Shown here: positions 6,214 through 25,333 of the stretch, piece after piece
How the letters are laid out: every line of letters begins with the position of its first letter
Position numbering within the stretch: position 1 is the first letter of the stretch
NCBI RefSeq assembly: GCF_008180155.1
Contig: NZ_VSZS01000057.1
Coordinates: 1 to 64,000 of the forward strand
Source: Neoaquamicrobium microcysteis
GTDB taxonomy: Bacteria > Pseudomonadota > Alphaproteobacteria > Rhizobiales > Rhizobiaceae
Reading direction: 5' to 3'
Length of the DNA: 64,000 bases
The notes under the pieces: model-generated
Told to the model about the DNA's origin: nothing
What the model saw: the letters and a program-made list of their open reading frames with translations, nothing else
Database searches by the model: none
Program-made: the position numbers and the translations under genes

Positions 6214-6328
6214 GGGTGCCTCCTTGCAGGTGCCTATCCTCATGATAGCGCCGTTGGTCTGGCAGAACTTTCCAGAATGCCTCGCAATCAGATCGTTCTT
6301 GGCATATCCTTTCGTTCAGAAGGAGAAT

Positions 6329-8083: not shown

Positions 8084-8911
8084 TCAGCCTACGAAGGCGC
8101 GTTCGACGACGAATTCCGCCGGCTTGTTGTTCGAGCCTTCGGTGAGCCCGAAACCCTCAACAAGCGTCTTCACGTCGCGGATCATGTCCATCGAGCCGCA
8201 GATCATCACACGATCGACTGCGGGGTCGAAGGGCGAGGTGCCGGTATCCCTGAACAGCTGGCCGCTCTCGATCAGCGTGGTGATGCGGCCCATGCGCACG
8301 AAGGCCTCACGAGTCGTCGTCGCATGGTGCACGAAGCGCCCGTTGACGAGTTCGCCGATCAGCGGGTCGGCGCCAAGGTCGCGCGCCAGTTCCTCGCCAT
8401 AGGCGAGCTCCGCGACATCGCGCGTGGTGTGGGTGAGGATGACCTGCTCGAACTTCTCGTAGGTCTCGGGGTCGCGCATCAGGCTGGCGAAGGGTGCGAT
8501 GCCTGTGCCGGTCGAGATCATCCACAAACGGCTTCCCGGCGTCAGCGCATCCAGCACCAGCGTGCCGGTCGACTTCTGGCGCATCAGAACGGTATCGCCG
8601 GGCTGGATCTTCTGCAGGTGCTGCGTCAGCGGGCCGTCGGGCACCTTGATGGAGAAGAACTCCAGTTCCTCGTCCCACGAGGGACTTGCTATGGAATAGG
8701 CCCGGAACACCGGCTTCTCCGCATTCGGCAGCCCGATCATGACGAACTCGCCCGAGCGGAAGCGAAAGCTCTGCGGACGCGTGATGCGGAAGGAGAACAG
8801 GCGATCCGTATAATGCCTCACCGAAACCACGCGCTCGGCATGAACGCCGGCTGGAATGGGAAACTCGATCGGGCGTGCGGTGCCGATGTCCTGGCGCGCG
8901 GCTGTGTTCAT
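8084..8911 (-). CDS. fpr: ferredoxin--NADP+ reductase
   Basis: This 275-residue flavoprotein moves electrons between NADPH and ferredoxin or flavodoxin. The FAD-binding motif RAYSIAS is seen, followed by the NADP region GTGIAPFASLMRDP, a CGSMDM segment and the C-terminal EFVVERAFVG typical of bacterial Fpr. The ATG at 8911 has AGGA eight bases upstream; an ATG at 8920 is also possible. The gene is divergent from hyuA, and the shared 170 bp promoter region carries one of three similar palindromes linked to the nicotinate-like block. This suggests it may feed low-potential electrons to the reductase encoded at 14733-16259; that role is inferred from position only. Confidence 0.92.
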   Translation of the reverse strand: MNTAARQDIGTARPIEFPIPAGVHAERVVSVRHYTDRLFSFRITRPQSFRFRSGEFVMIGLPNAEKPVFRAYSIASPSWDEELEFFSIKVPDGPLTQHLQKIQPGDTVLMRQKSTGTLVLDALTPGSRLWMISTGTGIAPFASLMRDPETYEKFEQVILTHTTRDVAELAYGEELARDLGADPLIGELVNGRFVHHATTTREAFVRMGRITTLIESGQLFRDTGTSPFDPAVDRVMICGSMDMIRDVKTLVEGFGLTEGSNNKPAEFVVERAFVG

Positions 8912-8984
8912 CGATGGCATCCTGTGCTGACGGGTGGCCGGAAGAAGGTCTCGGCGGGTGGAAGGTCTGCGCTTGCCACCCGAG

Positions 8985-9004
8985 ATTATTAGTATACAAA
9001 TGAT
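8985..9004. promoter_or_regulatory. candidate operator, site A (fpr/hyuA intergenic)
   Basis: A 20-bp imperfect palindrome, ATTATTAGTA followed by TACAAATGAT (8 of 10 arm positions match), lies between the divergent fpr and hyuA starts. The right arm recurs almost unchanged at 19899-19908 (TGCAAATGAT), and a weaker relative is at 25314-25333. Length and symmetry suit a dimeric winged-helix regulator; the MarR protein encoded at 12868-13287 is the natural candidate. Confidence 0.5.
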
Positions 9005-9082
9005 TATTGCGTCAAGATCAGAGCATAGGGCGGTATTCCAAATTGTGCTTCTTCGGCAGTTTCTCCGTTTCGGAAATCCCGC

Positions 9083-11143
9083 ATGACTGAGAAAGAAGCT
9101 GCAGACGGCATTGTCGCCGGTATCGACGTCGGAGGCACCTTTACCGACCTGCTGCTGCTGGAACCAGATAGTGGCCGCGTGCGCGTCGGCAAGGTTCCGA
9201 CCACCGTTCACAACCAGGCTTTCGGCGTTGTGTCCGCCCTCGAAGCGACCGGGCGACCCATATCCGAGATCGACCTGATCGTCCACGGCACGACGACCAC
9301 TACCAATGCGGTTCTCGAACGCCGCCTTGCCAGGACCGGTATGATTACCACCGCCGGTTTTCGCGACGTGATCGAACTTGGCCGTCGCACGCGGCCGCAG
9401 CCTTATGGCATGACCGGCGTTTTCGCACCCGTCATCCCGCGCAACCTGCGACTTGAGGTTTCCGAGCGGCTTGAAGCTTCAGGCAAGGTGCGCATCCCTC
9501 TTGACGAACACGGGCTGCGCACAGCCATCGGCCGATTGATCGAGGAAGGCTGCGAATCCCTCGTCATCCATTTCCTCCATGCCTACGCCAACCCGGCACA
9601 CGAACTGCGCGCCGCCGAGATCGCACGCGAGATGTGGCCGAACGAGCACGTGACGACTGGCCACTCTCTGCTTTCGGAAGCACGCGAGTTCGAACGCGGC
9701 GTTACCGCGGCGGTCAACGCATCCGTCCAGCCGATCCTCAAGCGCTACATCGGCCGGCTGGCCGACGAGTTGCGGTCGCGCGGCTACGGCCGTGATTTTC
9801 TGGTGATGAACGGCAATGGCGGCATGATCTCCGCCCGCTTCGTGACAGAAGAGGCCGCCAAGACGGTGATGTCCGGCCCCGCCTCGGGCGTGATGGCGGC
9901 CGCCTATACCGCGCGGCGTGCCGGCTTCGCCAACGTCGTCACCTACGACATGGGCGGCACTTCCACCGACGTTGCGCTGATCCGCAACGCCCGGCCCGCA
10001 GTGTCGAACGAGATCGAGATCGAATATGCGATGCCGATCCACGTTCCGATGGTCGATGTGCACACGGTGGGCGCGGGCGGCGGCTCGATCGCTAGGATCG
10101 ACGATGCGGGGCTCATCCGCGTGGGCCCGGAAAGCGCGGGCGCGACGCCGGGTCCGATCTGCTACGGCCGCGGCGGGATCGAACCCACCATATCCGACGC
10201 CAACCTCGTCCTGGGTCGACTGAACCCGAACAAGCTGCTCGCGGTGGACAGCCCGGTCTCCGTCGGCACGGTTGCGCAAATCTTTGAAGACCGGATCGGC
10301 CGCAGGGCCCGCCTGGACGGCGTTGCGGCGGCAGGTGCCGTGCTGAGGCTCGGCAATCTGAAGATGGCCGGCGCGATCCGCATGGTGTCGGTCGCCAAGG
10401 GGCACGATCCGCGAGATTTCGCGCTGTTTGCCTTCGGCGGCGCGGGCCCGCTGCATGCCTGCGCTCTGGCGCGCGAGCTTTCAATCCCCAGGGTGATCGT
10501 GCCGGCGCGCCCAGGCATCACCAACGCGCTAGGCTGCGTGGTGGCCGACATGCGCCATGACTTCGTGCGCACGGTGAACCGGCCGGTCGCCGATCTGGAC
10601 GAGGGCCTGCTTGCCGCGATCCTGAACGAACAGGCCGACGAAGGCCGCGCCCTGATCGCCAAGGAAGCGGTGCGGCCCGAGACTGTGCGCGTCATGCACT
10701 CGGCCGACATGCAGTTCGTCGGGCAGACCCATCTCATCAACGTCTCGCTGCCCGGCGCGACTGTGTCGCGGCAGGAAGTGCAGACGCTTTTCGAGCAGGC
10801 CTATTTCGCGCGTTTCAAGGTCTCGCTGCCGGAAATCCGCGCCAATCTCGTCAATCTGAACACCTCCGTCATCGGCGAGCGCAAGCAGATCGACCTGTCG
10901 GTGCTGATCGACCCTGCCGGGCGCGAGGCGACACTGGATGCGGCGCGGACCGAAACCCGCCCCGCCTGGTTCGACGGCGAGTGGATCGACACGCCGGTCT
11001 ACGCGCGCGAGAAACTGCCGCTCGATGCACATATCGTAGGCCCGGCGATCCTGGAGCAGCTCGACGCCACCACTGTCATCGAACCCGGCGACCGGGCGAC
11101 GGGAGACGCTGACGGCAACATCATCATCGAGGTGGCAAGATGA
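9083..11143 (+). CDS. hyuA: hydantoinase/oxoprolinase A subunit (HyuA-like)
   Basis: This 686-residue protein is the ATP-binding subunit of an HyuA/HyuB enzyme, a family that uses ATP to hydrolyse cyclic amides such as hydantoins and 5-oxoproline. Motifs of the actin-like ATPase fold are visible: IDVGGTFTDLL near the N-terminus, DMGGTSTDVAL in the middle, and FGGAGPLHACALARE towards the C-terminus. Length is normal for the family. It overlaps hyuB by four bases (ATGA). In this neighbourhood a plausible substrate is the six-membered lactam 1,4,5,6-tetrahydro-6-oxonicotinate; a hydantoin or oxoproline is the alternative. Confidence 0.9.
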   Translation: MTEKEAADGIVAGIDVGGTFTDLLLLEPDSGRVRVGKVPTTVHNQAFGVVSALEATGRPISEIDLIVHGTTTTTNAVLERRLARTGMITTAGFRDVIELGRRTRPQPYGMTGVFAPVIPRNLRLEVSERLEASGKVRIPLDEHGLRTAIGRLIEEGCESLVIHFLHAYANPAHELRAAEIAREMWPNEHVTTGHSLLSEAREFERGVTAAVNASVQPILKRYIGRLADELRSRGYGRDFLVMNGNGGMISARFVTEEAAKTVMSGPASGVMAAAYTARRAGFANVVTYDMGGTSTDVALIRNARPAVSNEIEIEYAMPIHVPMVDVHTVGAGGGSIARIDDAGLIRVGPESAGATPGPICYGRGGIEPTISDANLVLGRLNPNKLLAVDSPVSVGTVAQIFEDRIGRRARLDGVAAAGAVLRLGNLKMAGAIRMVSVAKGHDPRDFALFAFGGAGPLHACALARELSIPRVIVPARPGITNALGCVVADMRHDFVRTVNRPVADLDEGLLAAILNEQADEGRALIAKEAVRPETVRVMHSADMQFVGQTHLINVSLPGATVSRQEVQTLFEQAYFARFKVSLPEIRANLVNLNTSVIGERKQIDLSVLIDPAGREATLDAARTETRPAWFDGEWIDTPVYAREKLPLDAHIVGPAILEQLDATTVIEPGDRATGDADGNIIIEVAR

Positions 11144-12888
11144 GCGCGCTCGACACCATTACGCTCTCCGTCATCGAGGCCGCCTTGCAGCAGGTCTGCG
11201 ATGAGATGGACCTGGCCTTCTCCCGTTCCGCCTTCTCGCCGATCATCGCCGAGGCCAACGACCGCTCCGACGGCATCTACTCGGCCGAGGACGGCTCGCT
11301 GATCGCCCAAGGGGTGGGCGGCCTGCCGGTCTTCGTGGGCGTCATGCAGTATTCGACGCGCACGGTGATTGAGATGATCGCGCAGGGCCGCGTCCTGCCG
11401 CCGGAAGAAGGCGACATCTACATCGTCAACGATCCCTACCTTGGCGGTACGCATCTCATGGATGTGCGCTTCGCCATGCCGGTCTGGCGCAACGGCGCGA
11501 TATTCTGCTGGGTCTCCAATACCGGCCACTGGCCCGATATCGGCGGCGCGGTACCGGGCGGCTTTTCGGCTTCCGCCACCGCGGTCGAGCAGGAAGGGCT
11601 GCGGCTGCCGCCGGTCAAGCTGTTCAAGAAGGGCGTGCTGGACCCGGAAATCTACGCCATCATCACGTCCAACATCCGCATCGCCGAGCAGCGCATCGGC
11701 GACATCAAGGCACAGGCGGCCGCCTTGCAGGTGGGGCGGGACCGGTTGTTTGAAATCCTGGATCGTTACGGAGACGATACGGTTGTAACGGCAATCGCGG
11801 AGTTGCGCCGACGCGCAGCCATGCAGATGCGCGCCCGCATCGCCGCCATCGATGACGGCACCTATCTCGGCGTCGCCTTCGTGGACTCGGACGGGGTGGT
11901 GGATGAGCCGTTGGAGATCAGGCTCGCTGTCGAGAAGAAGGACGACACGCTCACCTTCGATTTTTCGGGATCGAGCGAGCCCTGCCTCGGCCCGATGAAC
12001 TCGGTTCTGGCGACGACGCATTCGTCGGTGTATCTCGCCATGCGCCACATTTTTCCGGATGTGCCGATCAGCGCGGGAGCGTTCGAGCCGCTGGTCATCC
12101 TGCGGCCGGAAGGAACGTTCCTCGACGCGCAGTACCCAAGGCCGGTTTCGGGCTGCGCGGCGGAAGTATCCCAACGCATCGCCGAGGCCGTCTTCTCTGC
12201 CATGGTGAAGGCGCTGCCCGACAAGGTGACGGCCGCGCCTGCTGGCTCGAGCGGCAATTTCGGGCTCGGCGGCTTCGACCCCCAGCGCGGGCGGCCCTTC
12301 GTTCTCTACCAGCTTTCCGGTGGCGGCTATGGCGGCAATGCCGACCATGACGGGCTTTCGAACGGGTGCTCCACGATCGGCATCTCCAAATCGCCGCCCG
12401 TTGAGATCATGGAACAGGCCTACCCCATCCTCTACAACCACTATCGCCTGCGCGAAGGCTCGGGAGGGGCGGGCAAGCAGCGCGGCGGGCTCGGCCTCGA
12501 CTACGAGATCGAGCTGCTGAGAGGCGACGCGCGCGCTTCTTTCGTCATGGATCACGGCCGCTACGGGCCGCAGGGCGCTCTGGGCGGCGATGACGGGGCG
12601 GTCAACACCGTAACCGTCTTCCGCAACGGCGAGGCGCATGTGCCAAAGCATCTTTCGAAGGAGCAGGACATTCCGCTCTCCGCCGGCGACCGCGTTCGTG
12701 TCGGCACGCCCGGCGGTGGTGGATACGGCGATCCACGGATGCGTGACCCTCAGGCCGTGCGGCGCGACGTGGAGCTCGGATACTACACGGCCGACGACGC
12801 GAAGCGGCTGTTCGCGGTCGTGCTCGAAAACGGGACAGTAAGCGAGCAAGCGACCGTGCGGCTGCGCTCAGCTGATCTTCGCCAGTAA
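11140..12888 (+). CDS. hyuB: hydantoinase/oxoprolinase B subunit (HyuB-like)
   Basis: This 582-residue protein is the partner of the upstream HyuA subunit in ATP-dependent hydrolysis of a cyclic amide. Typical HyuB stretches are present: the N-terminal SVIEAALQQVCDEMDLAF, NDPYLGGTHLMDV, SNTGHWPDIGG, and the glycine-rich C-terminal GTPGGGGYGDP. The gene starts inside the hyuA stop (ATGA) and converges with the MarR gene, overlapping its 3' end by 21 bp. The size is full length. Confidence 0.9.
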   Translation: MSALDTITLSVIEAALQQVCDEMDLAFSRSAFSPIIAEANDRSDGIYSAEDGSLIAQGVGGLPVFVGVMQYSTRTVIEMIAQGRVLPPEEGDIYIVNDPYLGGTHLMDVRFAMPVWRNGAIFCWVSNTGHWPDIGGAVPGGFSASATAVEQEGLRLPPVKLFKKGVLDPEIYAIITSNIRIAEQRIGDIKAQAAALQVGRDRLFEILDRYGDDTVVTAIAELRRRAAMQMRARIAAIDDGTYLGVAFVDSDGVVDEPLEIRLAVEKKDDTLTFDFSGSSEPCLGPMNSVLATTHSSVYLAMRHIFPDVPISAGAFEPLVILRPEGTFLDAQYPRPVSGCAAEVSQRIAEAVFSAMVKALPDKVTAAPAGSSGNFGLGGFDPQRGRPFVLYQLSGGGYGGNADHDGLSNGCSTIGISKSPPVEIMEQAYPILYNHYRLREGSGGAGKQRGGLGLDYEIELLRGDARASFVMDHGRYGPQGALGGDDGAVNTVTVFRNGEAHVPKHLSKEQDIPLSAGDRVRVGTPGGGGYGDPRMRDPQAVRRDVELGYYTADDAKRLFAVVLENGTVSEQATVRLRSADLRQ

Positions 12889-13287
12889 GCGCATCAGCGT
12901 CGCCATCTCGCGCTCGTTCAGAGGTGCGGAGGTCTGTTCGGTAATGTGCCGCGCCAGCGGCAACAGCCGTTCGACCGCTTCCTGTCCGGTCGCCGTGAGA
13001 CTGACGACGAGCCGCCTCTTGTCCTCGTCATGCTTGGTGAGATCGACGAGGCCCCGCGCTTTCAGGCGGTCGATGACGCCCTTGATGGTGGCCGCATCCA
13101 TGGCGATCAGCGCGCCCAGCTGGTTCTGGGAGGTCGCGCCGACCTCGGCCAGCTTTGCCAGAGCGGCGAACTGAGGCGGCGTCAGCTCGCCGATGTGGCG
13201 CGCGAAAATCGCAATGTGGCGCTGGCTGGCCTTGCGCAGCACGAAGCCGATCTGGTCTTCCAGATGATAAGGCCGGTCGCCACTCAC
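12868..13287 (-). CDS. MarR family transcriptional regulator
   Basis: This 139-residue winged-helix protein (from a GTG at 13287) carries the usual MarR layout: dimerisation helices at both ends and a DNA-binding core around LTPPQFAALAKLAEVG and AATIKGVIDRLKARGL, with the wing sequence KHDEDKRRLVVSLT. The GTG overlaps the preceding stop as GTGA, which favours it; a TTG at 13317 with a GGAGG-like site would give 149 residues. As the last gene of the operon beginning at 19854, it probably senses a pathway intermediate and may bind the palindromes near 8995, 19899 and 25324. Confidence 0.9.
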   Translation of the reverse strand: MSGDRPYHLEDQIGFVLRKASQRHIAIFARHIGELTPPQFAALAKLAEVGATSQNQLGALIAMDAATIKGVIDRLKARGLVDLTKHDEDKRRLVVSLTATGQEAVERLLPLARHITEQTSAPLNEREMATLMRLLAKIS

Positions 13288-13868
13288 CGAAGGCCGTCCT
13301 CGCCCTTGACCTGCCAAGCCTCCAGCCCGCCCATTCGCGAGTGGATGCGCGGGCCGCAGGCCATGGCCAGCACGAAGAGGATTTCATCCGGGCGTGGCCC
13401 GTCCGGCGCGGCGACCTCGATTGCGTCGAAATGGCTGCGAACGTAGGCGGCATTGGTGTGGCCGAGCGGCACGTCGAGCCGGCTGCCGAAGGCGCCGACC
13501 TTCATCGCCGAGGGCACGATAGCCTTCGAAACGCCCAGCCGTTCGCGCATCGCATAACCTCCCGGAACATGCCACAGCGCGCCGTGTTCTATCTCGCCCG
13601 CCGTCCCGACGATCGCGCCCTTGCCGTAACCGTCGATCGCCGCGGTGTCGCCGCCAAGCGCGGCAATGAGCCTGTTCGTCAGCATCCGACCGAGCGGCTT
13701 CAGATCGTCCATCGCGGATTGAAGCTCGTCCGCGTAGCCACCGGCGAACGGGTTTTTCACCAGCGCCATCGCTGCGCCGCGGCGGCGCGCCGTGTCCGGC
13801 TTCGGTCCGCCGTCATGCAGGATTTCCTCGGTGAACACCGCAATCTTGCGGATGGCAAATTCAGGCAT
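13284..13868 (-). CDS. amino acid synthesis family protein (PF06684)
   Basis: This 194-residue protein belongs by sequence to the family labelled 'amino acid synthesis' (PF06684), whose biochemical function I do not know. The start MPEFAIRKIAVFTEEILHDGG and the segments RRGAAMALVKNPFAGGY and LVKNPFAGGYADEL are typical. There is no signal peptide or membrane segment, so it is cytosolic. The ATG at 13868 overlaps the stop of the UPF0280 gene by eight bases and has GGGAGGGAG upstream. Being locked between the UPF0280 and MarR genes, it probably acts in the same pathway. Confidence 0.85.
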   Translation of the reverse strand: MPEFAIRKIAVFTEEILHDGGPKPDTARRRGAAMALVKNPFAGGYADELQSAMDDLKPLGRMLTNRLIAALGGDTAAIDGYGKGAIVGTAGEIEHGALWHVPGGYAMRERLGVSKAIVPSAMKVGAFGSRLDVPLGHTNAAYVRSHFDAIEVAAPDGPRPDEILFVLAMACGPRIHSRMGGLEAWQVKGEDGLR

Positions 13869-14736
13869 GGGCCAGCTCCCTCCCCGTGGAGTTTCGGTCG
13901 GACGGGAGCGTGCCGGCCACCCGGTGCTCGCCGTTGAGAAACAGTGCAGCCGACAAGACAAGCCCGCGCCCGACAAATTCTTCCGCCACAAGAAGCCCGG
14001 CTTCCAGAGCATCGGCCGTCTCTGTGGCAGACAGGCGACTAACCGCAGTGGTTACCATTCGTGACCCCAGATCGCTGTCGGGTGCAAGGTCGTTTGCCGG
14101 CATTCGTTTGATCGCCGGATGGCCGGGCAGATCGACTGCGTTGGCGATGAGCGTCGCGGCGGCATCGGCCGAGGCAGCGTCACGCGCTAGGACGGTGACG
14201 GCATCGGCGATGCCCAGTGAATGGCTGCGCCCGCGCCAGCCGCTGGTGGCGATGCCGCGAACCGTATCCTCAAACCGGATCGTCACCCTGTCGGCAAAGC
14301 CATGGCCGGTGCCGGCAACTGCCGCCCTCATTTGCATGCCCGGCGCGAGATGAAACGAGATGTCGCCACCATTGTTGGCATAGGAGCGGTCGAGGCGCCG
14401 ACCGGATGTCATTGCCGCCAGAACCTCATCGGCCACGCTGCCGGCCACGGCTGCCATGGGCGTGATGAACCGGCCGGACATTCGGCAGACCGCTTGTTCC
14501 ATCCGCCGAGCCGTCGCACCGGTGAAAGAGCGAGGGTTGGCGCAGGCCGGACGACGCAATTCGGCAAGCTCGCCGACGAGTTCGATCAGAACGGTATCGA
14601 AACGAAGCTTGGCCTGCCTATAAGCGGCATCCACTTCCATAGGGTCGCCGAACGCCTCGACGATCAGGTCGATCGGCCCGTGATTGAGATGCAGCCGCCG
14701 TCCGTCCGAAAGCATCGCCGCCTGAGGGCCGATCAT
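13861..14736 (-). CDS. UPF0280 family protein (ApbE-like)
   Basis: This 291-residue protein of the UPF0280 family is related to the ApbE flavin transferase fold. Recognisable stretches are LNHGPIDLIVEAFG, SYANNGGDISFHL and GRSHSLGIADAVTVLA; the NGGDI segment corresponds to the ApbE-type core. It starts inside the stop of the reductase gene (ATGA). Characterised 6-hydroxynicotinate reductase from Eubacterium barkeri carries covalently bound flavin, so a role in attaching flavin to its neighbour is an attractive inference, unproven. No signal peptide is seen. Confidence 0.85.
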   Translation of the reverse strand: MIGPQAAMLSDGRRLHLNHGPIDLIVEAFGDPMEVDAAYRQAKLRFDTVLIELVGELAELRRPACANPRSFTGATARRMEQAVCRMSGRFITPMAAVAGSVADEVLAAMTSGRRLDRSYANNGGDISFHLAPGMQMRAAVAGTGHGFADRVTIRFEDTVRGIATSGWRGRSHSLGIADAVTVLARDAASADAAATLIANAVDLPGHPAIKRMPANDLAPDSDLGSRMVTTAVSRLSATETADALEAGLLVAEEFVGRGLVLSAALFLNGEHRVAGTLPSDRNSTGRELAHA

Positions 14737-16259
14737 TGTGGGCGCTCGCGACGAAGCTGGGCGAGAGGCGGCCAGGTGTTGCCAGCCGGCGCGGCTGTCG
14801 CCGTCCGCTCGTTGAAATACTCGCCGCCAGCCGCCAGCACATCCTCGACCGAGCGAACCTGCGAGGCATAGCCACCCAACGCCTCGTAATGATCCCGGCG
14901 CAGGGTGAACTCGATTGGCGCCACCAGCGCCGGCGTCGGGACATAGCCAAAGGCGTTGTCGGGCAGGCGCATCACGTCAACCATCAGCGTGATGCCGCCG
15001 CCCGGCCAGATGTACACGGGCGCACCGCCACAGGTGACATATGTCCGCAACCCCTGGACCGAGCGCGTCAGGTTCACCGGGTTCTCGGTCACGCCGGCGC
15101 GAAGCGAGCCGCCGGCCCCGCCCATGAAAAGCACGGTGCAGAGCGCGGGCTCGCAATTGTCCTCGATCAGATCGACCGACTTGCGCAAGCGATCTGGGAA
15201 CGGCTTCTCGACGGGAACGAGACCATCGTCCAGCTCGAAATAGGCGAACTGTTCGCCGGTGGTGGACACCATGAGCAGCGACAGGCCGGGCCTTGCGCCC
15301 TTCTTCTGGTTCCACGGACCGAGTATTTCCAAGGGGTCGGTAAGCGTGGTGCCGCCCCAGCCGAGGCCGGGCTCGGATACCTTGAAATAGCGACCCGGCG
15401 TCGAGCGACGCCCGATGATCTTGATACCGGTATCGGGCCAGCCAATGACCTTGCCGGCCTGATGCTCGGATACGACGCCGGTGATGTGATCGTCGACAAC
15501 CACCACCTCGTCCACCAGATCCTTCCACTGCGTGGCGAACATGCCGATGGTGGCGGACCCGCACCCCACCCGCATGCGATGCTCGGCGCGCCCGTCGATG
15601 ACCGGCGGCTGACCCGCCTGCACGACCACGGTCGACCCGCCGTCGATGGAAAGCTCCACCGCCTGCTTGTTGCACAGCGCCAGCATCGTATCGCAGGTCA
15701 CGCGACCTTCGCTCTTGGAGCCGCCGGTGAGGTGACGCACGCCGCCGAGCGACAGCATCTGCGAGCCGTATTCGGCCGTCGTCACGTGGCCGACCGGCTC
15801 GCCCTGCGAAAACACCGTGGCGGTCTCGGGCCCGATATGGCGGTCGGTGTCGATCTTCACCTTGACCCCGCAGTAGGAGAAAATGCCCTCCGTCACCACG
15901 GTGACCAGATCGACGCCTTCGACTTCCTGACTGACGATAAAGGGTGCGGGCTTGAAGTCGGGATAGGTGGTTCCAGCACCAATGCCGCTGACGAAACGGC
16001 GGGCTCGATTGACCGGATTGCCGTCCCACTCCTCGCTGGCGAGCGGGACGACCTCGCCGCCGTTTTCAACCCGGTAGTCGAGCACCGCTACGGCATCGCA
16101 GCGCACGATACGGCCACCGAAATTGCCGTAGCGATCGCATGCGCCGGTGCGCCCCTCGGCGATGTAGCACATCACCGGGCAGGCATCGCAGCGCAGCTTT
16201 TCGCCGGCCTTTGCCTCGCCGGGATCGTGTGTCTCGAAACGCTCTGAAAGCTCGCTCAT
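14733..16259 (-). CDS. hnr: 6-hydroxynicotinate reductase-like iron-sulfur flavoprotein
   Basis: This 508-residue protein matches the family annotated as 6-hydroxynicotinate reductase, which reduces 6-hydroxynicotinate to 1,4,5,6-tetrahydro-6-oxonicotinate. An N-terminal cysteine cluster, C24-x2-C27-x3-C31-x9-C41, could hold an iron-sulfur centre; further cysteines are at 54, 130, 189, 196, 233, 374 and 410. Residues 257-263 read DHITGVV, resembling the Dxx(S/T)GA-type site where ApbE attaches FMN, though with V for A. It overlaps both neighbours by four bases: the molybdenum hydroxylase gene upstream and the UPF0280 gene downstream. Substrate is inferred from family naming and context. Confidence 0.82.
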   Translation of the reverse strand: MSELSERFETHDPGEAKAGEKLRCDACPVMCYIAEGRTGACDRYGNFGGRIVRCDAVAVLDYRVENGGEVVPLASEEWDGNPVNRARRFVSGIGAGTTYPDFKPAPFIVSQEVEGVDLVTVVTEGIFSYCGVKVKIDTDRHIGPETATVFSQGEPVGHVTTAEYGSQMLSLGGVRHLTGGSKSEGRVTCDTMLALCNKQAVELSIDGGSTVVVQAGQPPVIDGRAEHRMRVGCGSATIGMFATQWKDLVDEVVVVDDHITGVVSEHQAGKVIGWPDTGIKIIGRRSTPGRYFKVSEPGLGWGGTTLTDPLEILGPWNQKKGARPGLSLLMVSTTGEQFAYFELDDGLVPVEKPFPDRLRKSVDLIEDNCEPALCTVLFMGGAGGSLRAGVTENPVNLTRSVQGLRTYVTCGGAPVYIWPGGGITLMVDVMRLPDNAFGYVPTPALVAPIEFTLRRDHYEALGGYASQVRSVEDVLAAGGEYFNERTATAAPAGNTWPPLAQLRRERPQ

Positions 16260-18991: not shown

Positions 18992-19854
18992 GCAGCCACC
19001 CCCTCTTTCACCGAAGCACAAGACGCGAGCGCGAGCGCGATACCGCGCCAAACGATCTCGCGTGCGGCGTTAAGGCGGTATTCGGCCGTCGCGCGCACGT
19101 CGTCTATCGGCGACAACTCATCAAAATCATGCGCGTTGATGAGGTGATGCAGCGCACCACCCTCCACCTCGCCCCGCAGCGCCGCCTCCAGTGCGGTCAA
19201 TCTCACAGCTACCGCCGAGCAGGAACCGACCGCGATGGCCGCTTCCTCGATCCGGCCGTCTTCGTCCGTCACGATGCGGGCCGCCGCCATGGCAATCGAG
19301 ATCACCAGATAGCGGCGGGCACCCAGCTTTACGAAATGCGAATGGCCGGCGGCGGATCGCTTCGGCACCCGCACCGCCGTGAGCATTTCGCCCGGGCCGA
19401 GCGCAGTGCGGCGATTGCCCAGTATGAAATCGCCAAGCGGTAATACCCGCGCACGGTCCGAGGAGCGCAGTTCGACCTCGGCGTCGAGAGACAGAAGCGG
19501 CGGCACGCCATCCGCCGCCGGCGAAGCGTTGCAGAGGTTGCCCGCGATGGTTCCTGCGTTCTGGATCTGTACCGAACCCACCTCGCGGGCGGCGAGTTTC
19601 AGCGCATCGAACGCAGGTGGAAGCTTCGCGCGGATGATATCGGTCCAGCTTGCCCGCGCGCCGAAGACGAAATGGGTCTCCGTTTCCGATACGTGCCGAA
19701 GGTCGGACAGTCCGTTGAGGTCGAGTATGTCTTCGCGAATGGGTCGTGCGCCCTGCGCGGGATAAAAGTCGGTGCCGCCGGCCAGAAGACGCCAGCGCCC
19801 TTCTGCCAGTAGCGCGAGTGCCTCGTCTGTCGACTTCGGTTTCGCGTATCGCAT
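18988..19854 (-). CDS. molybdenum hydroxylase FAD-binding subunit
   Basis: This 288-residue protein is the CoxM/XdhA-type FAD subunit. The flavin-binding LLAGGTDFYP motif is near residue 25, and QIQNAGTIAGNLCNASPAAD supplies the second FAD contact region. It accepts electrons from the iron-sulfur clusters of the protein encoded next. It is the first gene of the six-gene operon; the ATG at 19854 is used here, with a possible ATG five codons upstream. The promoter region up to pncA carries palindrome site B, which suggests regulation together with fpr/hyuAB and the importer. Confidence 0.9.
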   Translation of the reverse strand: MRYAKPKSTDEALALLAEGRWRLLAGGTDFYPAQGARPIREDILDLNGLSDLRHVSETETHFVFGARASWTDIIRAKLPPAFDALKLAAREVGSVQIQNAGTIAGNLCNASPAADGVPPLLSLDAEVELRSSDRARVLPLGDFILGNRRTALGPGEMLTAVRVPKRSAAGHSHFVKLGARRYLVISIAMAAARIVTDEDGRIEEAAIAVGSCSAVAVRLTALEAALRGEVEGGALHHLINAHDFDELSPIDDVRATAEYRLNAAREIVWRGIALALASCASVKEGVAA

Positions 19855-19888
19855 CGTTCCTGCTCCCATTGGGAAGCATGCGCCGAAA

Positions 19889-19908
19889 TTCGTTCGTATG
19901 CAAATGAT
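19889..19908. promoter_or_regulatory. candidate operator, site B (FAD subunit/pncA intergenic)
   Basis: The arm TGCAAATGAT at 19899-19908 matches site A (TACAAATGAT) in nine of ten positions; the left arm TTCGTTCGTA is a weaker mirror (6 of 10). It lies between the divergent operon starting at 19854 and the pncA gene starting at 19986, so one bound regulator could control both. Confidence 0.45.
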
Positions 19909-19985
19909 ATCCGAACTCGCCTCTTGCCAAGCCGGCAATTCGCCGTAAGCCTGTCGCAACGTCCGCGCACAAGGGGAAACACACC

Positions 19986-20581
19986 ATGGCCGACAAGGCA
20001 CTGATCGTCATCGACGTGCAGAAGGATTTCTGTCCCGGCGGCGCGCTAGCGGTTGCAGGCGGCGACGAGATCGTGCCGCTCGTCAACCGGCTGATCGGCG
20101 AGTTCGACCACGTCGTGCTGACGCAGGACTGGCATCCCGCCCGACACTCGTCCTTCGCTTCGACGCATCCAGGCAGGAACCCGTTCGAGACGGTGGAGAT
20201 GCCCTATGGCCAGCAGACGCTGTGGCCCGACCACTGTGTCCAGGGTTCGGCCGGAGCGGAATTTCATCCGCAGCTGGAATGGACCAAGGCCGAGTTGATT
20301 GTCCGCAAGGGCTTTCGCCCAGGCATCGACTCCTACTCGGCGTTTTTCGAGAACGACCATCGTACGCCGACGGGACTTGCCGGCTATCTGCGCGAACGCG
20401 GCATATCCGACCTGACGCTGGTCGGTCTGGCTACCGATTTCTGCGTGGCCTACTCCGCGCTCGACGCGGTGCGCTCGGGCTTTTCGGCGACAGTACTTCT
20501 CGACGCCTGCCGTGCGATCGACCTGGACGGATCGCTGGCCGCGATGAAGGACGAAATGGCTGCCGAGGGCGTCAGGCTGGG

Positions 20582-20585
<4 letters not shown>
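19986..20585 (+). CDS. pncA: nicotinamidase (bifunctional nicotinamidase/pyrazinamidase type)
   Basis: This 199-residue cytosolic hydrolase converts nicotinamide to nicotinate and ammonia. The catalytic triad is visible: D10 (VIDVQKDF), K108 (VRKG) and C153 (ATDFCVAYSALD). The metal site is D48, H50 (TQDWH) and H83 (WPDHCVQG). Length fits the E. coli-type enzyme. AAGGGGA precedes the ATG by nine bases. It is divergent from the molybdenum hydroxylase operon and converges on the importer operon with a four-base overlap. The placement supplies nicotinate to the neighbouring pathway, though a role in NAD salvage is also normal for PncA. Confidence 0.95.
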
Positions 20586-21281
<696 letters not shown>

Positions 21282-21289
<8 letters not shown>

Positions 21290-22028
21290 CGCGTCCGGTC
21301 CCTAGATACGCTTCCTGCACCGCCGCATTCGCGCGGATTTCTTCTGCACTGCCTTCGGCCAGCACGCGGCCGAAATTCATCACCGTGATTTTTTGCGCAA
21401 GCTGCATGACCACGGGCATGTTGTGCTCGATCAGAAGTACGGTGGCTTCCTTCGCGATCTCGCGCACGAGCGCGATGAAGCCTTCGATCTCGCCGTCGGA
21501 GAGACCCTGCGTGGGCTCGTCGAGGATGAGGAGGCGCGGCTCCAGCGCCAGACCCATCGCCACTTCCAGAAGGCGCTGGTGGCCGTAGGCGAGATTGCCG
21601 GCAAGGGTCTGCGCACGATCGGCAAGCCCCACACGCGCCAATGCCTGTGCCACGCCGGCGTCGAGTTCGCCCGCCACGACACGCCCCGCCTTCAGAAGCC
21701 TGCGCTGTACCGAGAGCGCGACGTTGTCGTAGACCGTCAGCTTCGGGAAAATGCTGGTGATCTGGAACGTGTAGGCGATGCCGGCCAGCACGCGCTTGTG
21801 TGCCGGCAATCGGGTGATGTCGTTCCCATCCAGCGCGATCGAACCGGAACTCGGCGCGATGCGGCCGCAGATCAGGCTGACGAAGGTGGTCTTGCCGGCG
21901 CCGTTGGGCCCGATGATCGCGCGGATCTCACCGGGCTGGAGGGTAAAGTCCACCGCCTCGACGGCCTTTAGCCCGCCGAAATGCCGCGACAGCGCCCGGG
22001 TTTCGATCAGCGGGGTCACGGCAGCCAT
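21282..22028 (-). CDS. ABC transporter ATP-binding protein, LivG type
   Basis: This 248-residue ATPase is the second nucleotide-binding subunit. Walker A is GPNGAGKTT and Walker B LLILDEPTQGL; the signature position reads LAYGHQRLLE, the usual LivG variant. The ATG at 22028 lies inside the 3' end of the permease gene (13 bp overlap), so production is coupled. It forms the heterodimeric ATPase with the LivF-type protein. Confidence 0.92.
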
Positions 22029-22981
22029 TTCAGCCACCTTTCGCGCACGGTGCCCAGAAGCCCCTTGGGGAAGAACAGGATGAGCAGGATCAGCGCGACG
22101 CCGACCAGCAGCAGGTAGGCCGTGGTGAAGCCGGAAGTGTAGTCGATGATGTAGAACATGAAGAGCGTGCCGACCAGCGGCCCGAGCGTCGTTGCCGCGC
22201 CACCCAGCAGCACCCACAGCAGCGGCAGGATGGAATACTGGATGGACGCGAAGCCGGAGCCGACATACCCGAAGAGCAGCCCGTAGGCCGCGCCGGCTGA
22301 AGCGCAGAACAGTCCCGACAGCACGACCGCGGTCAGCTTGGCGCGGAAGACGTCGTAGCCCAGCATCCGCATGCGCTCCTCGTTCTCGCGGATCGCGACC
22401 AGCGTGCGACCGAAGGGCGAGCGCACCAGCCGCAACATCAGGAGCAGGACGGCTGAAAACAGCGTCAGCGCGATCAGGTAGCGGGTAGACGGATTGCTGA
22501 GGCTGATGTCGAGCCCCGCGGGGTCGATTGTCCGCATCGCCTGCGACAGGACCAGCCCTTCCTCGCCGCGCGTCCATGTCGTGAAGTAGAGCGTGGTCAG
22601 GTAGAAGACCTGAGCGAACATCATCGTGACGATCATGAACGCCACACCCGTGGTGCGCAGCGCCAGCACGCCGATCACGAGCGCAAGCGTCCCGCCCGCA
22701 AGGATGCCGGTGCCAAATGATAGGGGGACACTCCAGCCCAGATGGTAGACAGGCAGCCCGGCCCCGTAGAGCCCTGCCGCAAAGAACATGGCGTGGCCGA
22801 GGCTGAGCAGGCCGGTATAGCCGAACAGCAAATTGTAACCCATCGCGAAGGTCGCCAGCACCAGCACGCGCGAGAACACGCCGCGATGATATTCCGGCAG
22901 CACGAAGTTTGCCGCGAGGAGCAGGGCGATAACCCCCAGATGCAGCGCCCAGACACGTGTGTTGCTGCCGACGGCGCTCAT
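22016..22981 (-). CDS. ABC transporter permease, LivM type
   Basis: This 321-residue inner-membrane permease has about nine hydrophobic segments and the conserved LivM stretch AIRENEERMRMLGYDVFRAKL that contacts the ATPases. It begins inside the stop of the LivH-type gene (ATGA, four bases) and overlaps the LivG-type gene. With its partner it forms the channel for the substrate captured by the periplasmic protein encoded at 23938-25242. Confidence 0.92.
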   Translation of the reverse strand: MSAVGSNTRVWALHLGVIALLLAANFVLPEYHRGVFSRVLVLATFAMGYNLLFGYTGLLSLGHAMFFAAGLYGAGLPVYHLGWSVPLSFGTGILAGGTLALVIGVLALRTTGVAFMIVTMMFAQVFYLTTLYFTTWTRGEEGLVLSQAMRTIDPAGLDISLSNPSTRYLIALTLFSAVLLLMLRLVRSPFGRTLVAIRENEERMRMLGYDVFRAKLTAVVLSGLFCASAGAAYGLLFGYVGSGFASIQYSILPLLWVLLGGAATTLGPLVGTLFMFYIIDYTSGFTTAYLLLVGVALILLILFFPKGLLGTVRERWLKWLP

Positions 22982-23859
22982 CGTGCAGGCACCCCGAACA
23001 AGCCCTGCGGGCGGAAGACCAGCACCATGGCGACAAGGCCCGTCGCCAGCATCTTGGCCAGCGTCGGCGAGAAGAAAACCGAGATGATGCCGTCGGACAG
23101 TCCGATCAGCAATGCCGCGATCACCGTGCCGCGCAGCGAACCAAGCCCGCCGATGATGACGACGATGAAGGACAGCAGCAGCGGGTCGCGGCCCATCAGG
23201 TAATGCGCCTGCTGGATCGGCACGATCAGCACGGCTGCGACAGCCGCCAGCATCGCACCGAGCGCGAACACGCCTGCATAGACGCGGTCGACCGGGATGC
23301 CGAAAGCCTGCGCCGTCTCACTGTCATATTGCGTGGCGCGCATGAGGAGACCGACCTTGGTGCGCGTCAGCACGAACCATGTCGCCAGCATCAGCACGAT
23401 GGCAGCGCCGATGACGAACAGCTTGTAGCCGGAATAGCCGAACCAAGGCAGCTGGATGCGCACGTTGAACGGAGCCTGAACCGGCCTCGCATCGGCACCG
23501 TAGAAGGTAAGCGCGAGTTGCTGGATGATATAGAGCATGCCGATGGTGGCCACGATCGTCGCTTCGGGATCGTAGTTCAGCCGGCGCAGAACCAGCCGCT
23601 CGGAAAGCAGCGCCGCACCGCCGACTACCAACGGCGCGACCAGCAGCGCCGCGGCGAAGCCGATGGACGGATGTCCGGCAAAAGCCGTGGACACGGCCCA
23701 CGCCAGCACCGCGCCGAGCATGAAGAACTCGCCATGCGCGACGTTGACCACGCGCATCACGCCGAAGACCAGCGACAGGCCCAGCGCGGTAAGCGCAAGC
23801 ACCGCCGCCGTGACGAGGCCTTCAAGGGTTGCCAGCAGGAAGTAGGGTCCGAAAGCCAT
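22978..23859 (-). CDS. ABC transporter permease, LivH type
   Basis: This 293-residue inner-membrane permease of the LivH class shows multiple hydrophobic segments, the N-terminal GLSLVFGVMRVVNVAHGEF motif and the C-terminal GGLGSLRGTVIAALLIGL typical of the family. It lies 78 bp downstream of the binding protein gene and overlaps the next permease gene by four bases. Confidence 0.92.
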   Translation of the reverse strand: MAFGPYFLLATLEGLVTAAVLALTALGLSLVFGVMRVVNVAHGEFFMLGAVLAWAVSTAFAGHPSIGFAAALLVAPLVVGGAALLSERLVLRRLNYDPEATIVATIGMLYIIQQLALTFYGADARPVQAPFNVRIQLPWFGYSGYKLFVIGAAIVLMLATWFVLTRTKVGLLMRATQYDSETAQAFGIPVDRVYAGVFALGAMLAAVAAVLIVPIQQAHYLMGRDPLLLSFIVVIIGGLGSLRGTVIAALLIGLSDGIISVFFSPTLAKMLATGLVAMVLVFRPQGLFGVPAR

Positions 23860-23937
23860 TCAGAACGCGTTTTCCCTGGCGCGGGCGGAGCGTCCGCGCT
23901 TCATGTCCAACTGAGTTGCGAAAGCCGCAACCGGCGA

Positions 23938-25242
23938 TCAAAGCGGCTGTGTGGTGTAGTCCGCTTCCGGCTCGTACATGCCGTCCTCGATGGAGGTACG
24001 ATGCACGACGTTGAGCCTGCCGTTCTCGACGACCGAGATGCTCTGACTGCCGAACACCTGATGGATCTTGCCGTTGAACACCTTGGCGCCCTGCGGATGT
24101 GCAGGCCCTTCCGGAAATTCCGTCATCGCCTCGGTAGCCTCGATCAGCTTGGCGCGATCCTCAGGCCCGCGATAGTCGGCCGCCTCCATCGCGTCCTTGA
24201 TAATGTGCAGCGTCTCCCAGCAGCCGAACATGTGCGCCGCCGTCGATACGTCGTTGGCATCGTTGACGCTGGCGCCTGTCTCGTCGAGCCCGACAGCCTC
24301 GCGATAGGCCTTCTCGGCATCAGTAGCGTCTTCCTGCAGGTAGCGCGGCATGCCTTCCCAGAAATGGCTGCCTTCAAGGAACTCAAGCCCGGGGCTGTTG
24401 ATGTTTACCGCCTCGAGGCTGTCGATGAAGCCGAACAGCTTCGGCCCGCTGCCGCCGTAGAACTCTCCCAGTTCCTTGACGAAGGTGAGCACCGCCGGCC
24501 CGACCATCACGTGATAGATCACGTCGGTATCGGCGGGGATTTGCGGGAAGTAGCGCGTGAACGACGATTCTGTCGGCGGGATCGGGATTTGTGCGACCAC
24601 TTCGCCGCCTTGCTCGGCCGCAGCCGGGCCGAAGAAGTCGCGGTGATCGTGGCCGAATGCGTAGTCGGGATAGATCATGGTGATCTTCTTGCCGACATTC
24701 GACGTGATCCAAGGCGCGACCGAGCGACACTGAGCACGCACGTCGGTGATGCCCGGCTGAAGCACGTAGCGGTTCATCTTGCCTGACGCTACATGGTAGC
24801 CCTCGCTGACCACGTAGTAGGGTATCTTCAGCTCGCCCGCGGCCGGGGCCGAGCCGACCACGACGTGGCTGAACAGCGTTCCGTAGACGATGTCGGTGCG
24901 GTGCTGGTTGGCGAATTTCTCCACCACCTCCGCGCCGCGCGCAGCATCGGTGCCGTCGTCCTCGGTGATGATCTCGACCGGCCGGCCGTTGATGCCGCCG
25001 GCGTCGTTGATGGCTTTGACGGCCGCAGCCGTCGTGCGCTCGTACCAGCGGCCGTAGGCGGCGCCGATGCCGGTGCGGTGCGCCTGAAAGCCGATCTTGA
25101 TCGGAGCAGACGACTGGGCCTGCGCGTAGCGCACGAAGCCGGGCGCGGTGCCGATGGCGGCCGCAGCGCCGAGTCCCTTGAGCGCGTTTCGTCTTGAAAT
25201 CGTGGATGTGAGAAGGCTGGAAGGCTTACGAATATCGGTCAT
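23938..25242 (-). CDS. periplasmic binding protein of a Liv-type ABC importer, Tat signal
   Basis: This 434-residue binding protein defines what the importer takes up. The N-terminus has a twin-arginine signal (SRRNALKGLGAAAAIG) with cleavage likely after the AQA near residue 43. The mature protein begins APIKIGFQAHRTGIG and shows type I periplasmic-binding folds (INGRPVEIITEDDGTD, YPDYAFGHDHRDFF). Start is the ATG at 25242 with AAGGGG eight bases upstream. Candidate operator site C lies 70-90 bp upstream. The ligand cannot be read from sequence; nicotinate or nicotinamide is the contextual guess. Confidence 0.9.
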   Translation of the reverse strand: MTDIRKPSSLLTSTISRRNALKGLGAAAAIGTAPGFVRYAQAQSSAPIKIGFQAHRTGIGAAYGRWYERTTAAAVKAINDAGGINGRPVEIITEDDGTDAARGAEVVEKFANQHRTDIVYGTLFSHVVVGSAPAAGELKIPYYVVSEGYHVASGKMNRYVLQPGITDVRAQCRSVAPWITSNVGKKITMIYPDYAFGHDHRDFFGPAAAEQGGEVVAQIPIPPTESSFTRYFPQIPADTDVIYHVMVGPAVLTFVKELGEFYGGSGPKLFGFIDSLEAVNINSPGLEFLEGSHFWEGMPRYLQEDATDAEKAYREAVGLDETGASVNDANDVSTAAHMFGCWETLHIIKDAMEAADYRGPEDRAKLIEATEAMTEFPEGPAHPQGAKVFNGKIHQVFGSQSISVVENGRLNVVHRTSIEDGMYEPEADYTTQPL

Positions 25243-25313
25243 CTGGGTTCCCCTTGACGTCTGCCTGCTGACGAGCGTTCCGCCGTTTACGATGCATTTC
25301 CGCACTGCAGAAA

Positions 25314-25333
25314 ATTGCATGTGTACAAACTAA
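25314..25333. promoter_or_regulatory. candidate operator, site C (upstream of binding protein gene)
   Basis: ATTGCATGTG followed by TACAAACTAA shares the TACAAA core with site A and lies upstream of the importer operon. The two arms mirror each other in only 5 of 10 positions, so this is the weakest of the three sites. It is listed because each of the three promoter regions of the block has one related element. Confidence 0.3.

What the first reader, a model, noticed from the sequence alone, without database searches (positions are those of the whole stretch)
8084..25242. Candidate aerobic gene set for reductive nicotinamide/nicotinate breakdown
Genes for a nicotinamidase, a two-subunit molybdenum hydroxylase, a 6-hydroxynicotinate reductase-like protein, an ApbE-like protein, a PF06684 protein, a MarR regulator, an HyuAB cyclic amidase, a ferredoxin-NADP reductase and a complete ABC importer lie together in three or four closely packed units. 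Known biochemistry: Eubacterium barkeri ferments nicotinate through 6-hydroxynicotinate and 1,4,5,6-tetrahydro-6-oxonicotinate, and Azorhizobium caulinodans was reported to use the same first intermediates under air. The inference is that this block encodes uptake, deamidation, hydroxylation, ring reduction and ring opening with parts that differ from the clostridial set: no enamidase is seen, and HyuAB and Fpr appear instead.
Basis: partly seen in the sequence, partly recalled or inferred. Interest (0 to 1): 0.8.

Follow-up and report, generated by a model that had tools for sequence, protein, structure and literature searches.

The report
Nicotinate breakdown with swapped ring-opening enzyme
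This stretch of a bacterial genome looks like a vitamin B3 (nicotinate) breakdown pathway of a known reductive kind, but the usual ring-opening enzyme is missing and an unrelated, probably ATP-driven enzyme seems to have taken its place, a swap that recurs in other bacteria and can be tested directly.

Summary
The cluster type is not new: PMC3511419 (2012) describes one with 6-hydroxynicotinate reductase (Hnr) in Azorhizobium, Bradyrhizobium and relatives. The window's genome has no enamidase orthologue. Of 385 sampled alphaproteobacterial genomes, 68 carry Hnr: 39 of these carry a window-type HyuB (>=64% identity), 29 an enamidase (>=68%), none both, none neither. With a second sample, 84 Hnr genomes split 47 HyuB, 35 enamidase, 2 both, 0 neither. 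On the Hnr tree the two change at least 7 times. A shared palindrome lies before the hydroxylase/Hnr operon and before hyuAB/fpr here and in close relatives. The simplest reading: HyuAB, an ATP-dependent lactamase, opens the ring of 1,4,5,6-tetrahydro-6-oxonicotinate in place of enamidase. Searches listed no paper that I saw to say so. Limits: the cut-offs were set after seeing the data, distant homologues of both enzymes occur below them, and no substrate or activity was tested. Fpr's membership stays open.

The parts
8084..8911 (-). Ferredoxin-NADP+ reductase-like gene (Fpr), divergent from hyuA; the likely start is at 8911 or a few codons upstream
   Evidence: Pfam FAD_binding_6 and NAD_binding_1; PRK10926, E 5.8e-41, below the equivalog cut-off; the only match in its genome at E<=1e-40
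8985..9004 (.). Operator-like palindrome ATTATTAGTATACAAATGAT between fpr and hyuA
9083..11143 (+). hyuA: ATP-binding subunit of an ATP-dependent lactamase (hydantoinase/caprolactamase family)
   Evidence: Pfam Hydantoinase_A E 3.7e-86; DxGGT at residues 15 and 289, GxxPGP at 353; PDB 6yra_A E 3.7e-110
11140..12888 (+). hyuB: metal-site subunit of the lactamase, proposed to open the ring of tetrahydro-6-oxonicotinate
   Evidence: Pfam Hydantoinase_B E 2.8e-158; aligns end to end with caprolactamase CapB 6yra_B, metal ligands D41, H105, D108, H130 kept
12868..13317 (-). MarR-family regulator, last gene of the hydroxylase/Hnr operon
   Evidence: Pfam MarR E 1.3e-10
13284..13868 (-). PF06684 (AA_synth, DUF1185) protein, role unknown
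   Evidence: Pfam E 6.2e-66; the only one in its genome; PDB 3byq E 7.4e-49
13861..14736 (-). UPF0280/COG2122 protein, proposed maturation factor of Hnr (ApbE-like fold)
   Evidence: PRK04334 E 4.6e-111; model pLDDT 92 matches 2o34 and ApbE/Ftp structures
14733..16259 (-). hnr: 6-hydroxynicotinate reductase-like iron-sulphur protein
   Evidence: 62-70% identity to the Hnr of the eight enamidase-only genomes (62% in G207, 68-70% in the rest); Cys 24, 27, 31, 41, 130, 233, 369 invariant in 41 of 41
16256..18991 (-). Nicotinate hydroxylase candidate: fused 2Fe-2S and molybdopterin subunit
   Evidence: Pfam Fer2_2, Ald_Xan_dh_C, MoCoBD_1 and MoCoBD_2; hits include nicotinate dehydrogenase 3hrd
18988..19854 (-). 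FAD subunit of the hydroxylase
   Evidence: Pfam FAD_binding_5 E 1.4e-40
19889..19908 (.). Operator-like palindrome TTCGTTCGTATGCAAATGAT between the FAD-subunit gene and pncA
19986..20585 (+). PncA-type nicotinamidase
   Evidence: Translation; Isochorismatase family match at this place; the genome's two other family members are not close to it
20582..25320 (-). Branched-chain-type ABC importer: two ATPases, two permeases, binding protein (23938-25320); nicotinate uptake inferred
   Evidence: Pfam ABC_tran, BPD_transp_2, Peripla_BP_6

Best explanation
The block is a regulon for aerobic, reductive breakdown of nicotinamide/nicotinate in which an ATP-dependent lactamase (HyuAB) replaces enamidase. 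Proposed order: the ABC importer takes up the vitamin; PncA deamidates nicotinamide; the FAD/2Fe-2S/Mo enzyme hydroxylates nicotinate to 6-hydroxynicotinate; Hnr, matured by the COG2122 protein and probably fed by ferredoxin, reduces it to 1,4,5,6-tetrahydro-6-oxonicotinate (THON); HyuA activates the lactam with ATP and HyuB, at its metal site, opens the ring to 2-(aminomethylene)glutarate, which hydrolyses to 2-formylglutarate and ammonia. A MarR protein would control both halves through a shared palindrome. Shown here: genes, neighbourhood, the HyuB/enamidase complementarity and the shared site. Inferred: every substrate and reaction, the roles of COG2122 and Fpr, and the MarR-site pairing.
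For: (1) In 385 class-level genomes, each of the 68 with Hnr carries either a window-type HyuB (>=64% identity, 39) or an enamidase (>=68%, 29), none both and none neither (63 of them; all). (2) Reverse test on the 385: 39 of 39 HyuB at >=64% are in Hnr genomes; 29 of 30 enamidases are. (3) First sample: of 21 Hnr genomes 11 HyuB only, 8 enamidase only, 2 both, 0 neither; of 13 Hnr-free genomes 0 carry either. (4) On the Hnr tree 7 changes between the two over 82 rows; 4 of 4 independent pairs on starred branches go opposite ways. (5) The enamidase used aligns over residues 14-393 of 402 with solved enamidase 2vun, E 7.3e-109, about 47% identity. (6) In the 64 kb window only one other place matches the 23-base fpr/hyuA site at >=15/23, and it lies before the FAD-subunit gene and pncA; a site is kept in 13 of 13 scanned hyuA upstream regions of the close clade. 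Outside that clade a site (>=15 bits) lies before the FAD-subunit gene in 59 of 90 loci, hyuA in 5 of 32 and enamidase in 5 of 24, against 1-2% of random windows. (7) In locus L105 a molybdo-cytochrome hydroxylase (1184 aa) and nicotinate phosphoribosyltransferase lie beside Hnr. (8) Lactamase motifs and metal ligands are intact.
Against: No activity, substrate or expression was measured. Direct comparison with E. barkeri Hnr was not possible; the 42% identity is for a relative and comes from PMC3511419. The exclusivity depends on cut-offs set after seeing the data: 3 of the 36 newly tested HyuB genomes (G391, G563, G354) hold an enamidase homologue at 35-42%, not far from the 47% between the query and 2vun; 11 of the 27 enamidase genomes hold HyuB paralogues at 36-44%. 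Two genomes (G123, G194) hold both proper types. Nine Hnr-free genomes carry HyuB at 55-62%, four of one family at 61-62%, and one Hnr-free genome carries an enamidase. In 27 of 32 loci outside the close clade no site was found directly before hyuA, and in 19 of 24 none before enamidase. CapB Tyr136, a proposed acid/base residue, is Phe142 in this HyuB. In 17 of 40 HyuB-labelled loci hyuAB is not within the fetched stretch, some of them cut by contig ends. On strongly supported branches the pair test has only 4 pairs and cannot reach 0.05.
Confidence: 0.78

Rival explanations
1. The cluster degrades a different N-heteroaromatic acid by the same logic (hydroxylate, reduce, open the lactam); the nicotinate labels are borrowed from homologues.
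For: The hydroxylase scores best against aldehyde oxidoreductases in PDB, ahead of nicotinate dehydrogenase; Mo-hydroxylase specificity cannot be read from family matches. The importer and the hydroxylase type vary between loci.
Against: PncA lies in the fetched stretch of 37 of 92 loci; the orthologous Hnr of L105 sits beside a molybdo-cytochrome hydroxylase and PncB; strain SG-6C, with the related cluster, grows on nicotinate with transient 6-hydroxynicotinate (PMC3511419, section 13).
Confidence: 0.12
2. HyuAB belongs to the regulon but acts elsewhere (a later amide or a side product), and another protein, for example PF06684, opens the ring.
For: A second PF06684 type accompanies enamidase: present in 29 of 35 enamidase loci against 1 of 40 HyuB loci, so PF06684 proteins may be tied to this stage.
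Against: The alternation of HyuB with enamidase, whose known step is ring opening plus deamination. 20 of 40 HyuB loci show no PF06684 in the fetched stretch, some of it cut by contig ends.
Confidence: 0.07
3. An enamidase-like amidohydrolase elsewhere in the genome, too distant for the cut-offs, opens the ring, and HyuAB is a linked hydantoinase of separate use.
For: The genome holds other amidohydrolases with weak matches (best E 1.6e-5, 25% identity). Three other HyuB genomes hold homologues at 35-42%.
Against: Enamidase orthologues score E<=1e-140 elsewhere; the window's genome and 33 of the 36 newly tested HyuB genomes have no match at E<=1e-30; the operator-like site is shared.
Confidence: 0.05

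Closest known systems
Nicotinate cluster of Azorhizobium caulinodans ORS571 (AZC_2804-2790), Bradyrhizobium japonicum USDA110, R. palustris HaA2 and strain SG-6C (PMC3511419; legend of figure 4 and section 13 read)
   Same: Hnr-type reductase, nicotinate hydroxylase genes, ABC importer and two conserved unknown proteins in one cluster; aerobic organisms
Eubacterium barkeri nicotinate fermentation (Alhapel 2006, paper not held; pathway recalled and summarised in passages of PMC9304392)
   Same: 6-hydroxynicotinate, then THON, then ring opening; Hnr family
   Different: Anaerobic; opens the ring with the amidohydrolase enamidase (PDB 2vun), of which the window's genome has no orthologue
ATP-dependent caprolactamase CapAB of Pseudomonas jessenii (PMC8453981, passages read; PDB 6yra)
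   Same: Two-subunit architecture, ATP motifs and metal ligands
   Different: Distant (NCBIfam scores well under the equivalog cut-offs); Tyr136 replaced by Phe142; different predicted substrate
COG2122/UPF0280 of homocysteine synthesis (Desulfovibrio, methanogens; PMC5764234, passages read)
   Same: UPF0280 profile match; nearest solved fold is DVU1097, 2o34. That UPF0280 and COG2122 are one family is recalled
   Different: Here it sits next to Hnr (within 300 bp in 90 of 92 loci); DUF39 and NIL/ferredoxin genes were not looked for

Membership tests
Reductive (THON) nicotinate catabolic cluster | 6-hydroxynicotinate reductase orthologue | tested here: met
   68 and 69% identity to Hnr of enamidase-bearing genomes G008 and G035; direct comparison with E. 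barkeri Hnr not made
Reductive (THON) nicotinate catabolic cluster | Molybdenum hydroxylase for nicotinate | tested here: inconclusive
   A Mo hydroxylase is present; its substrate cannot be told from sequence
Reductive (THON) nicotinate catabolic cluster | Enamidase for ring opening | tested here: not met
   Best match in the window's genome E 1.6e-5, 25% identity; absent at E<=1e-140
Reductive (THON) nicotinate catabolic cluster | ABC importer in the cluster | tested here: met
   Five genes at 20582-25320
[quoted passage not shown]
   COG2122 and PF06684 are present, but I did not see which two proteins PMC3511419 means
Reductive (THON) nicotinate catabolic cluster | Growth on nicotinate through 6-hydroxynicotinate and THON | not testable with these tools
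   Needs culture and LC-MS
ATP-dependent lactamase (HyuAB/CapAB/oxoprolinase) | ATP motifs DxGGT (twice) and GxxPGP in the A subunit | tested here: met
   Residues 15, 289 and 353 of HyuA; motifs from PMC8453981
ATP-dependent lactamase (HyuAB/CapAB/oxoprolinase) | Metal ligands of the B subunit (CapB D41, H99, D102, H124) | tested here: met
   Aligned D41, H105, D108, H130
ATP-dependent lactamase (HyuAB/CapAB/oxoprolinase) | Tyr136 of CapB as proposed acid/base | tested here: not met
   Phe142 at that place; proposed for CapB in PMC8453981, not treated here as family-defining
ATP-dependent lactamase (HyuAB/CapAB/oxoprolinase) | ATP-dependent lactam hydrolysis | not testable with these tools
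   Needs purified protein
COG2122/UPF0280 | Family profile above cut-off and ApbE-like fold | tested here: met
   PRK04334 370.6 bits against a cut-off of 290; Foldseek 2o34 E 3.4e-11, ApbE/Ftp/FmnB E from 1.6e-5
COG2122/UPF0280 | Covalent flavin transfer as in ApbE | tested here: inconclusive
   In Hnr I noted only GCGSAT, which is not the D-x-x-[S/T]-G-A-[S/T] target motif, and its T is Ala in 2 of 41 sequences; no systematic motif scan was run
PncA nicotinamidase | Isochorismatase family with the PncA sequence pattern | tested here: met
   the recognition of the PncA pattern is recalled

The most novel reading that the evidence does not exclude
A new biochemical variant of nicotinate catabolism: an ATP-dependent lactamase (HyuAB) opens the ring of 1,4,5,6-tetrahydro-6-oxonicotinate. 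It has repeatedly and almost mutually exclusively exchanged with the ATP-independent metallo-enzyme enamidase across Alphaproteobacteria, within one MarR regulon.
Probability: 0.75. Interest if true: 0.68.

Novelty: new variant of a known kind. Interest (0 to 1): 0.6.

Why it matters
It gives a concrete gene-level proposal for how alphaproteobacteria with Hnr but without enamidase could finish reductive nicotinate breakdown, suggests what some genes annotated as hydantoinase/oxoprolinase do, and offers a case of repeated replacement of one enzyme by an unrelated one that spends ATP. It also singles out two neighbours of unknown role, COG2122 and PF06684, for direct test; COG2122 may link this pathway to an unexplained step in homocysteine synthesis.

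Tried and rejected
Covalent flavin at Thr237 of Hnr (motif GCGSAT) as the target of COG2122: disfavoured, since Thr237 is Ala in 2 of 41 orthologues (L024, L027). That E. barkeri Hnr holds covalent flavin and uses ferredoxin is recalled only. [quoted passage not shown]

Fold of Hnr: the model has mean pLDDT 73 and no PDB match with E<=0.001. I draw nothing from it.

Fpr as a pathway-specific gene: not shown. All with coordinates: one match in each of 13 same-family genomes, four of them Hnr-free; next to hyuAB in 9 of 9 same-family Hnr genomes; beside hyuAB in 0 of 14 HyuB genomes of other families (7 have no match at E<=1e-40; in G569 it lies about 4 kb from Hnr). Of 19 enamidase-only genomes, Fpr lies beside enamidase in 7 (six of family f3, one of 2-3 copies; G207, its only copy, about 1 kb away on the same strand), elsewhere in 4, and has no match in 8.

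An operator before the binding-protein gene: weak (mean best score 9.5 against 8.6 shuffled, 30 loci).

Operator controls are rough. The window scan used the fpr/hyuA site itself as pattern, so only the second site is a finding. Shuffles keep base composition only. In one search, 13 of the 26 hyuA upstream regions, those outside the close clade, scored 7-12 of 16; L029 did not enter that scan, presumably by its start filter. In one search the top hit lay upstream of a cluster gene in 74 of 113 loci (3.3 expected by position, not allowing for A+T-rich intergenic DNA); 8 of the 74 score under 15 bits; 39 loci do not fit. One search compares with random windows of the same loci, which are mostly coding.

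Literature: '6-hydroxynicotinate reductase' (2 papers), 'Azorhizobium/nicotinate', 'nicotinate degradation', 'enamidase' (8 papers), 'caprolactamase/hydantoinase/nicotin' (36 papers, 20 listed), '6-hydroxynicotin' with 'hydantoinase' (none), 'formylglutarate' (5 papers). For most of these I saw the listing only. Alhapel 2006 and Kitts 1992 are not held; their content is recalled or cited through other papers.

Thresholds: HyuB >=64% and enamidase >=68% in the class sample (66% and 63% in the first sample) were set after seeing the gap. In some searches only the best 3 or 4 first-look candidates per genome were scored, so a miss is possible. The HyuB match of G354 is partial (residues 154-574 at a contig end).


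Full report
What is there. Reading right to left, the minus strand carries a five-gene branched-chain-type ABC importer (20582-25320). A second tight minus-strand run follows: FAD subunit, fused 2Fe-2S/Mo subunit, Hnr, COG2122, PF06684, MarR (19854 down to 12868), whose genes overlap by a few to some tens of bases. pncA (19986-20585) is divergent from this run. hyuA and hyuB (9083-12888) run on the plus strand, and a Fpr-like gene is divergent from hyuA. Among named records the closest Hnr relatives are from Chelativorans, Rhizobiaceae MAGs, Aminobacter and Mesorhizobium, so the source is an alphaproteobacterium of that kind (inferred).

What is already known. PMC3511419 (passages and section 13 read) reports a nicotinate cluster in A. 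caulinodans, B. japonicum, R. palustris HaA2 and strain SG-6C. It has an Hnr 42% identical to the E. barkeri enzyme, genes for the first three steps, an ABC importer and two conserved unknown proteins. The strain degrades nicotinate with transient 6-hydroxynicotinate. The cluster kind is therefore not new. The word enamidase does not occur in that paper's main text, and I did not see its figure.

Neighbourhood. In 92 loci (80 named; 12 unnamed) COG2122 lies within 300 bp of Hnr in 90, PncA is in the fetched stretch in 37, and HyuA or HyuB at 60% identity or more in 27. In a second count over 76 loci COG2122 lies within 300 bp of the best Hnr match in 72; of the other four one contig ends at Hnr (L185), one has Hnr split (L112), and in two it lies about half a kilobase off. 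In L105 it is a separate Fe-S subunit and a 1184-residue Mo subunit with a C-terminal cytochrome c region, next to nicotinate phosphoribosyltransferase; likening it to NicB is from memory.

The ring-opening swap. In some loci without HyuAB an amidohydrolase appears (L107:13178-14386). It aligns over residues 14-393 with enamidase 2vun, E 7.3e-109, about 47% identity. Counting both genes in whole genomes gave this. First sample (299 genomes, 21 with Hnr): 11 HyuB only, 8 enamidase only, 2 both, 0 neither; of 13 Hnr-free genomes tested none had either. Second sample (385 genomes, 68 with Hnr): the 63 not met before split 36 HyuB, 27 enamidase, 0 both, 0 neither; of 17 Hnr-free genomes tested beside them none passed the thresholds, the best being HyuB at 55% in G309. 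The 385-genome reverse search gave 39 HyuB at 64% or more, all with Hnr, and 30 enamidases, 29 with Hnr. If labels were dealt at random among the 68, no overlap has probability 7e-20; this ignores relatedness.

What speaks against strict exclusivity. Below the cut-offs lie distant homologues: enamidase-like proteins at 35-42% in 3 of the 36 HyuB genomes (G391, G563, G354) and at 37-43% beside the proper enamidase in others; HyuB paralogues at 36-44% in 11 of the 27 enamidase genomes; HyuB at 61-62% in four Hnr-free genomes of one family and at 55-57% in five more Hnr-free genomes; an enamidase in Hnr-free G369. 33 of the 36 HyuB genomes have no enamidase match at E<=1e-30.

Relatedness. On an 84-row Hnr tree (quick method) the two labels need 7 changes over the 82 rows that have one label only. 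Using starred branches alone, 4 independent pairs differ and all 4 go opposite ways; 7 pairs exist if all branches are trusted. Within single families both states occur: f100 (G445 enamidase, G610 HyuB) and f163 (G391 HyuB; G489, G574, G647 enamidase). The pattern is therefore not one old split, though the number of firmly supported switches is modest.

Shared control. With the fpr/hyuA palindrome ATTATTAGTATACAAATGATTAT as pattern, only one other place in the 64 kb window matches at 15 of 23 or better, and it lies between the FAD-subunit gene and pncA. In the close clade a site is found in 13 of 13 scanned hyuA upstream regions, scoring 13-16 of 16 where shuffles give about 9. With a matrix built from close-clade sites, loci of other groups show a site of 15 bits or more before the FAD-subunit gene in 59 of 90, before hyuA in 5 of 32 (L058, L101, L110, L125, L148), before enamidase in 5 of 24 (L108, L113, L115, L126, L146) and in the 350 bases before Hnr in 11 of 119, against 1-2% of random windows in the same loci. 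Many hyuA genes in those loci follow other genes on the same strand and may lie in longer operons; that is a guess. That MarR binds this site is inferred.

Mechanism. HyuA keeps the ATP motifs and HyuB the four metal ligands of caprolactamase. THON is a six-membered lactam, so ATP-driven lactam activation followed by metal-assisted hydrolysis would give 2-(aminomethylene)glutarate, which should lose ammonia in water (chemistry inferred). One difference from CapB is Phe142 in place of Tyr136. COG2122 has an ApbE-like fold in a confident model (pLDDT 92; 2o34 E 3.4e-11, ApbE/Ftp/FmnB from E 1.6e-5), and PMC5764234 (passages read) shows the family is needed for homocysteine synthesis in Desulfovibrio, step unknown. 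Its constant place beside Hnr suggests maturation of Hnr. I could not identify a flavin attachment site.

Fpr. It has one match in each of 13 same-family genomes, four of them Hnr-free, so it is probably the general Fpr. By coordinates it lies beside hyuAB in 9 of 9 same-family Hnr genomes but in 0 of 14 HyuB genomes of other families, and beside enamidase in 7 of 19 enamidase-only genomes, elsewhere in 4 and without a match in 8. A link to ferredoxin supply for Hnr is plausible and unproven.

Verdict. Known kind of pathway, with a ring-opening variant that I saw described in none of the papers listed. Interest 0.6.

Noticed in passing
window 2788-6243(-) and 6360-6821(+): A gene with POR and DUF6537 domains, likely a fused indolepyruvate:ferredoxin oxidoreductase (name recalled), divergent from an Lrp/AsnC regulator, a few kb from the cluster; it could be a source of reduced ferredoxin for Hnr.
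   Followed up: no
L107 and enamidase-type loci among L105-L185 (for example L132, L134, L165): Enamidase-type loci carry a second PF06684 paralogue (45% identical to the window's): 29 of 35 enamidase loci against 1 of 40 HyuB loci (L148, G391).
   Followed up: partly
L027-L036, L038, L041, L044, L045, L047, L049, L050, L054, L099: 19 Mesorhizobium-group loci have a CitMHS_2-type transporter gene beside pncA, absent from that place in the window.
   Followed up: partly
L027, L029, L049, L051 (partial in L028, L037): An aldehyde dehydrogenase gene (Pfam Aldedh) near the cluster, a candidate for oxidising glutarate semialdehyde later in the pathway.
   Followed up: partly
L190 (G496), L191 (G399): Genomes without detected Hnr carry HyuAB at about 60-62% next to a weak Mo-hydroxylase match (27-29%), perhaps a related route for another heterocycle.
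   Followed up: partly
L112 (G016), Hnr at about 9.2-10.7 kb: Hnr is split over two frames in this genome: either a sequencing error or a broken gene.
   Followed up: no
L186 (G123), L187 (G194): The two genomes with both ring-opening genes carry the enamidase on another contig than Hnr, with two PF06684 paralogues and a MarR-like gene beside it.
   Followed up: partly
L108, L113, L115: In these enamidase-type loci a strong operator-like site (31.7 bits) lies before the enamidase gene, on the side where Fpr is divergent, mirroring the fpr/hyuA region of the window.
   Followed up: partly
window 27164-27253(+): A tRNA-Ser (cga) gene just outside the cluster; no sign of mobile-element insertion was sought.
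   Followed up: no
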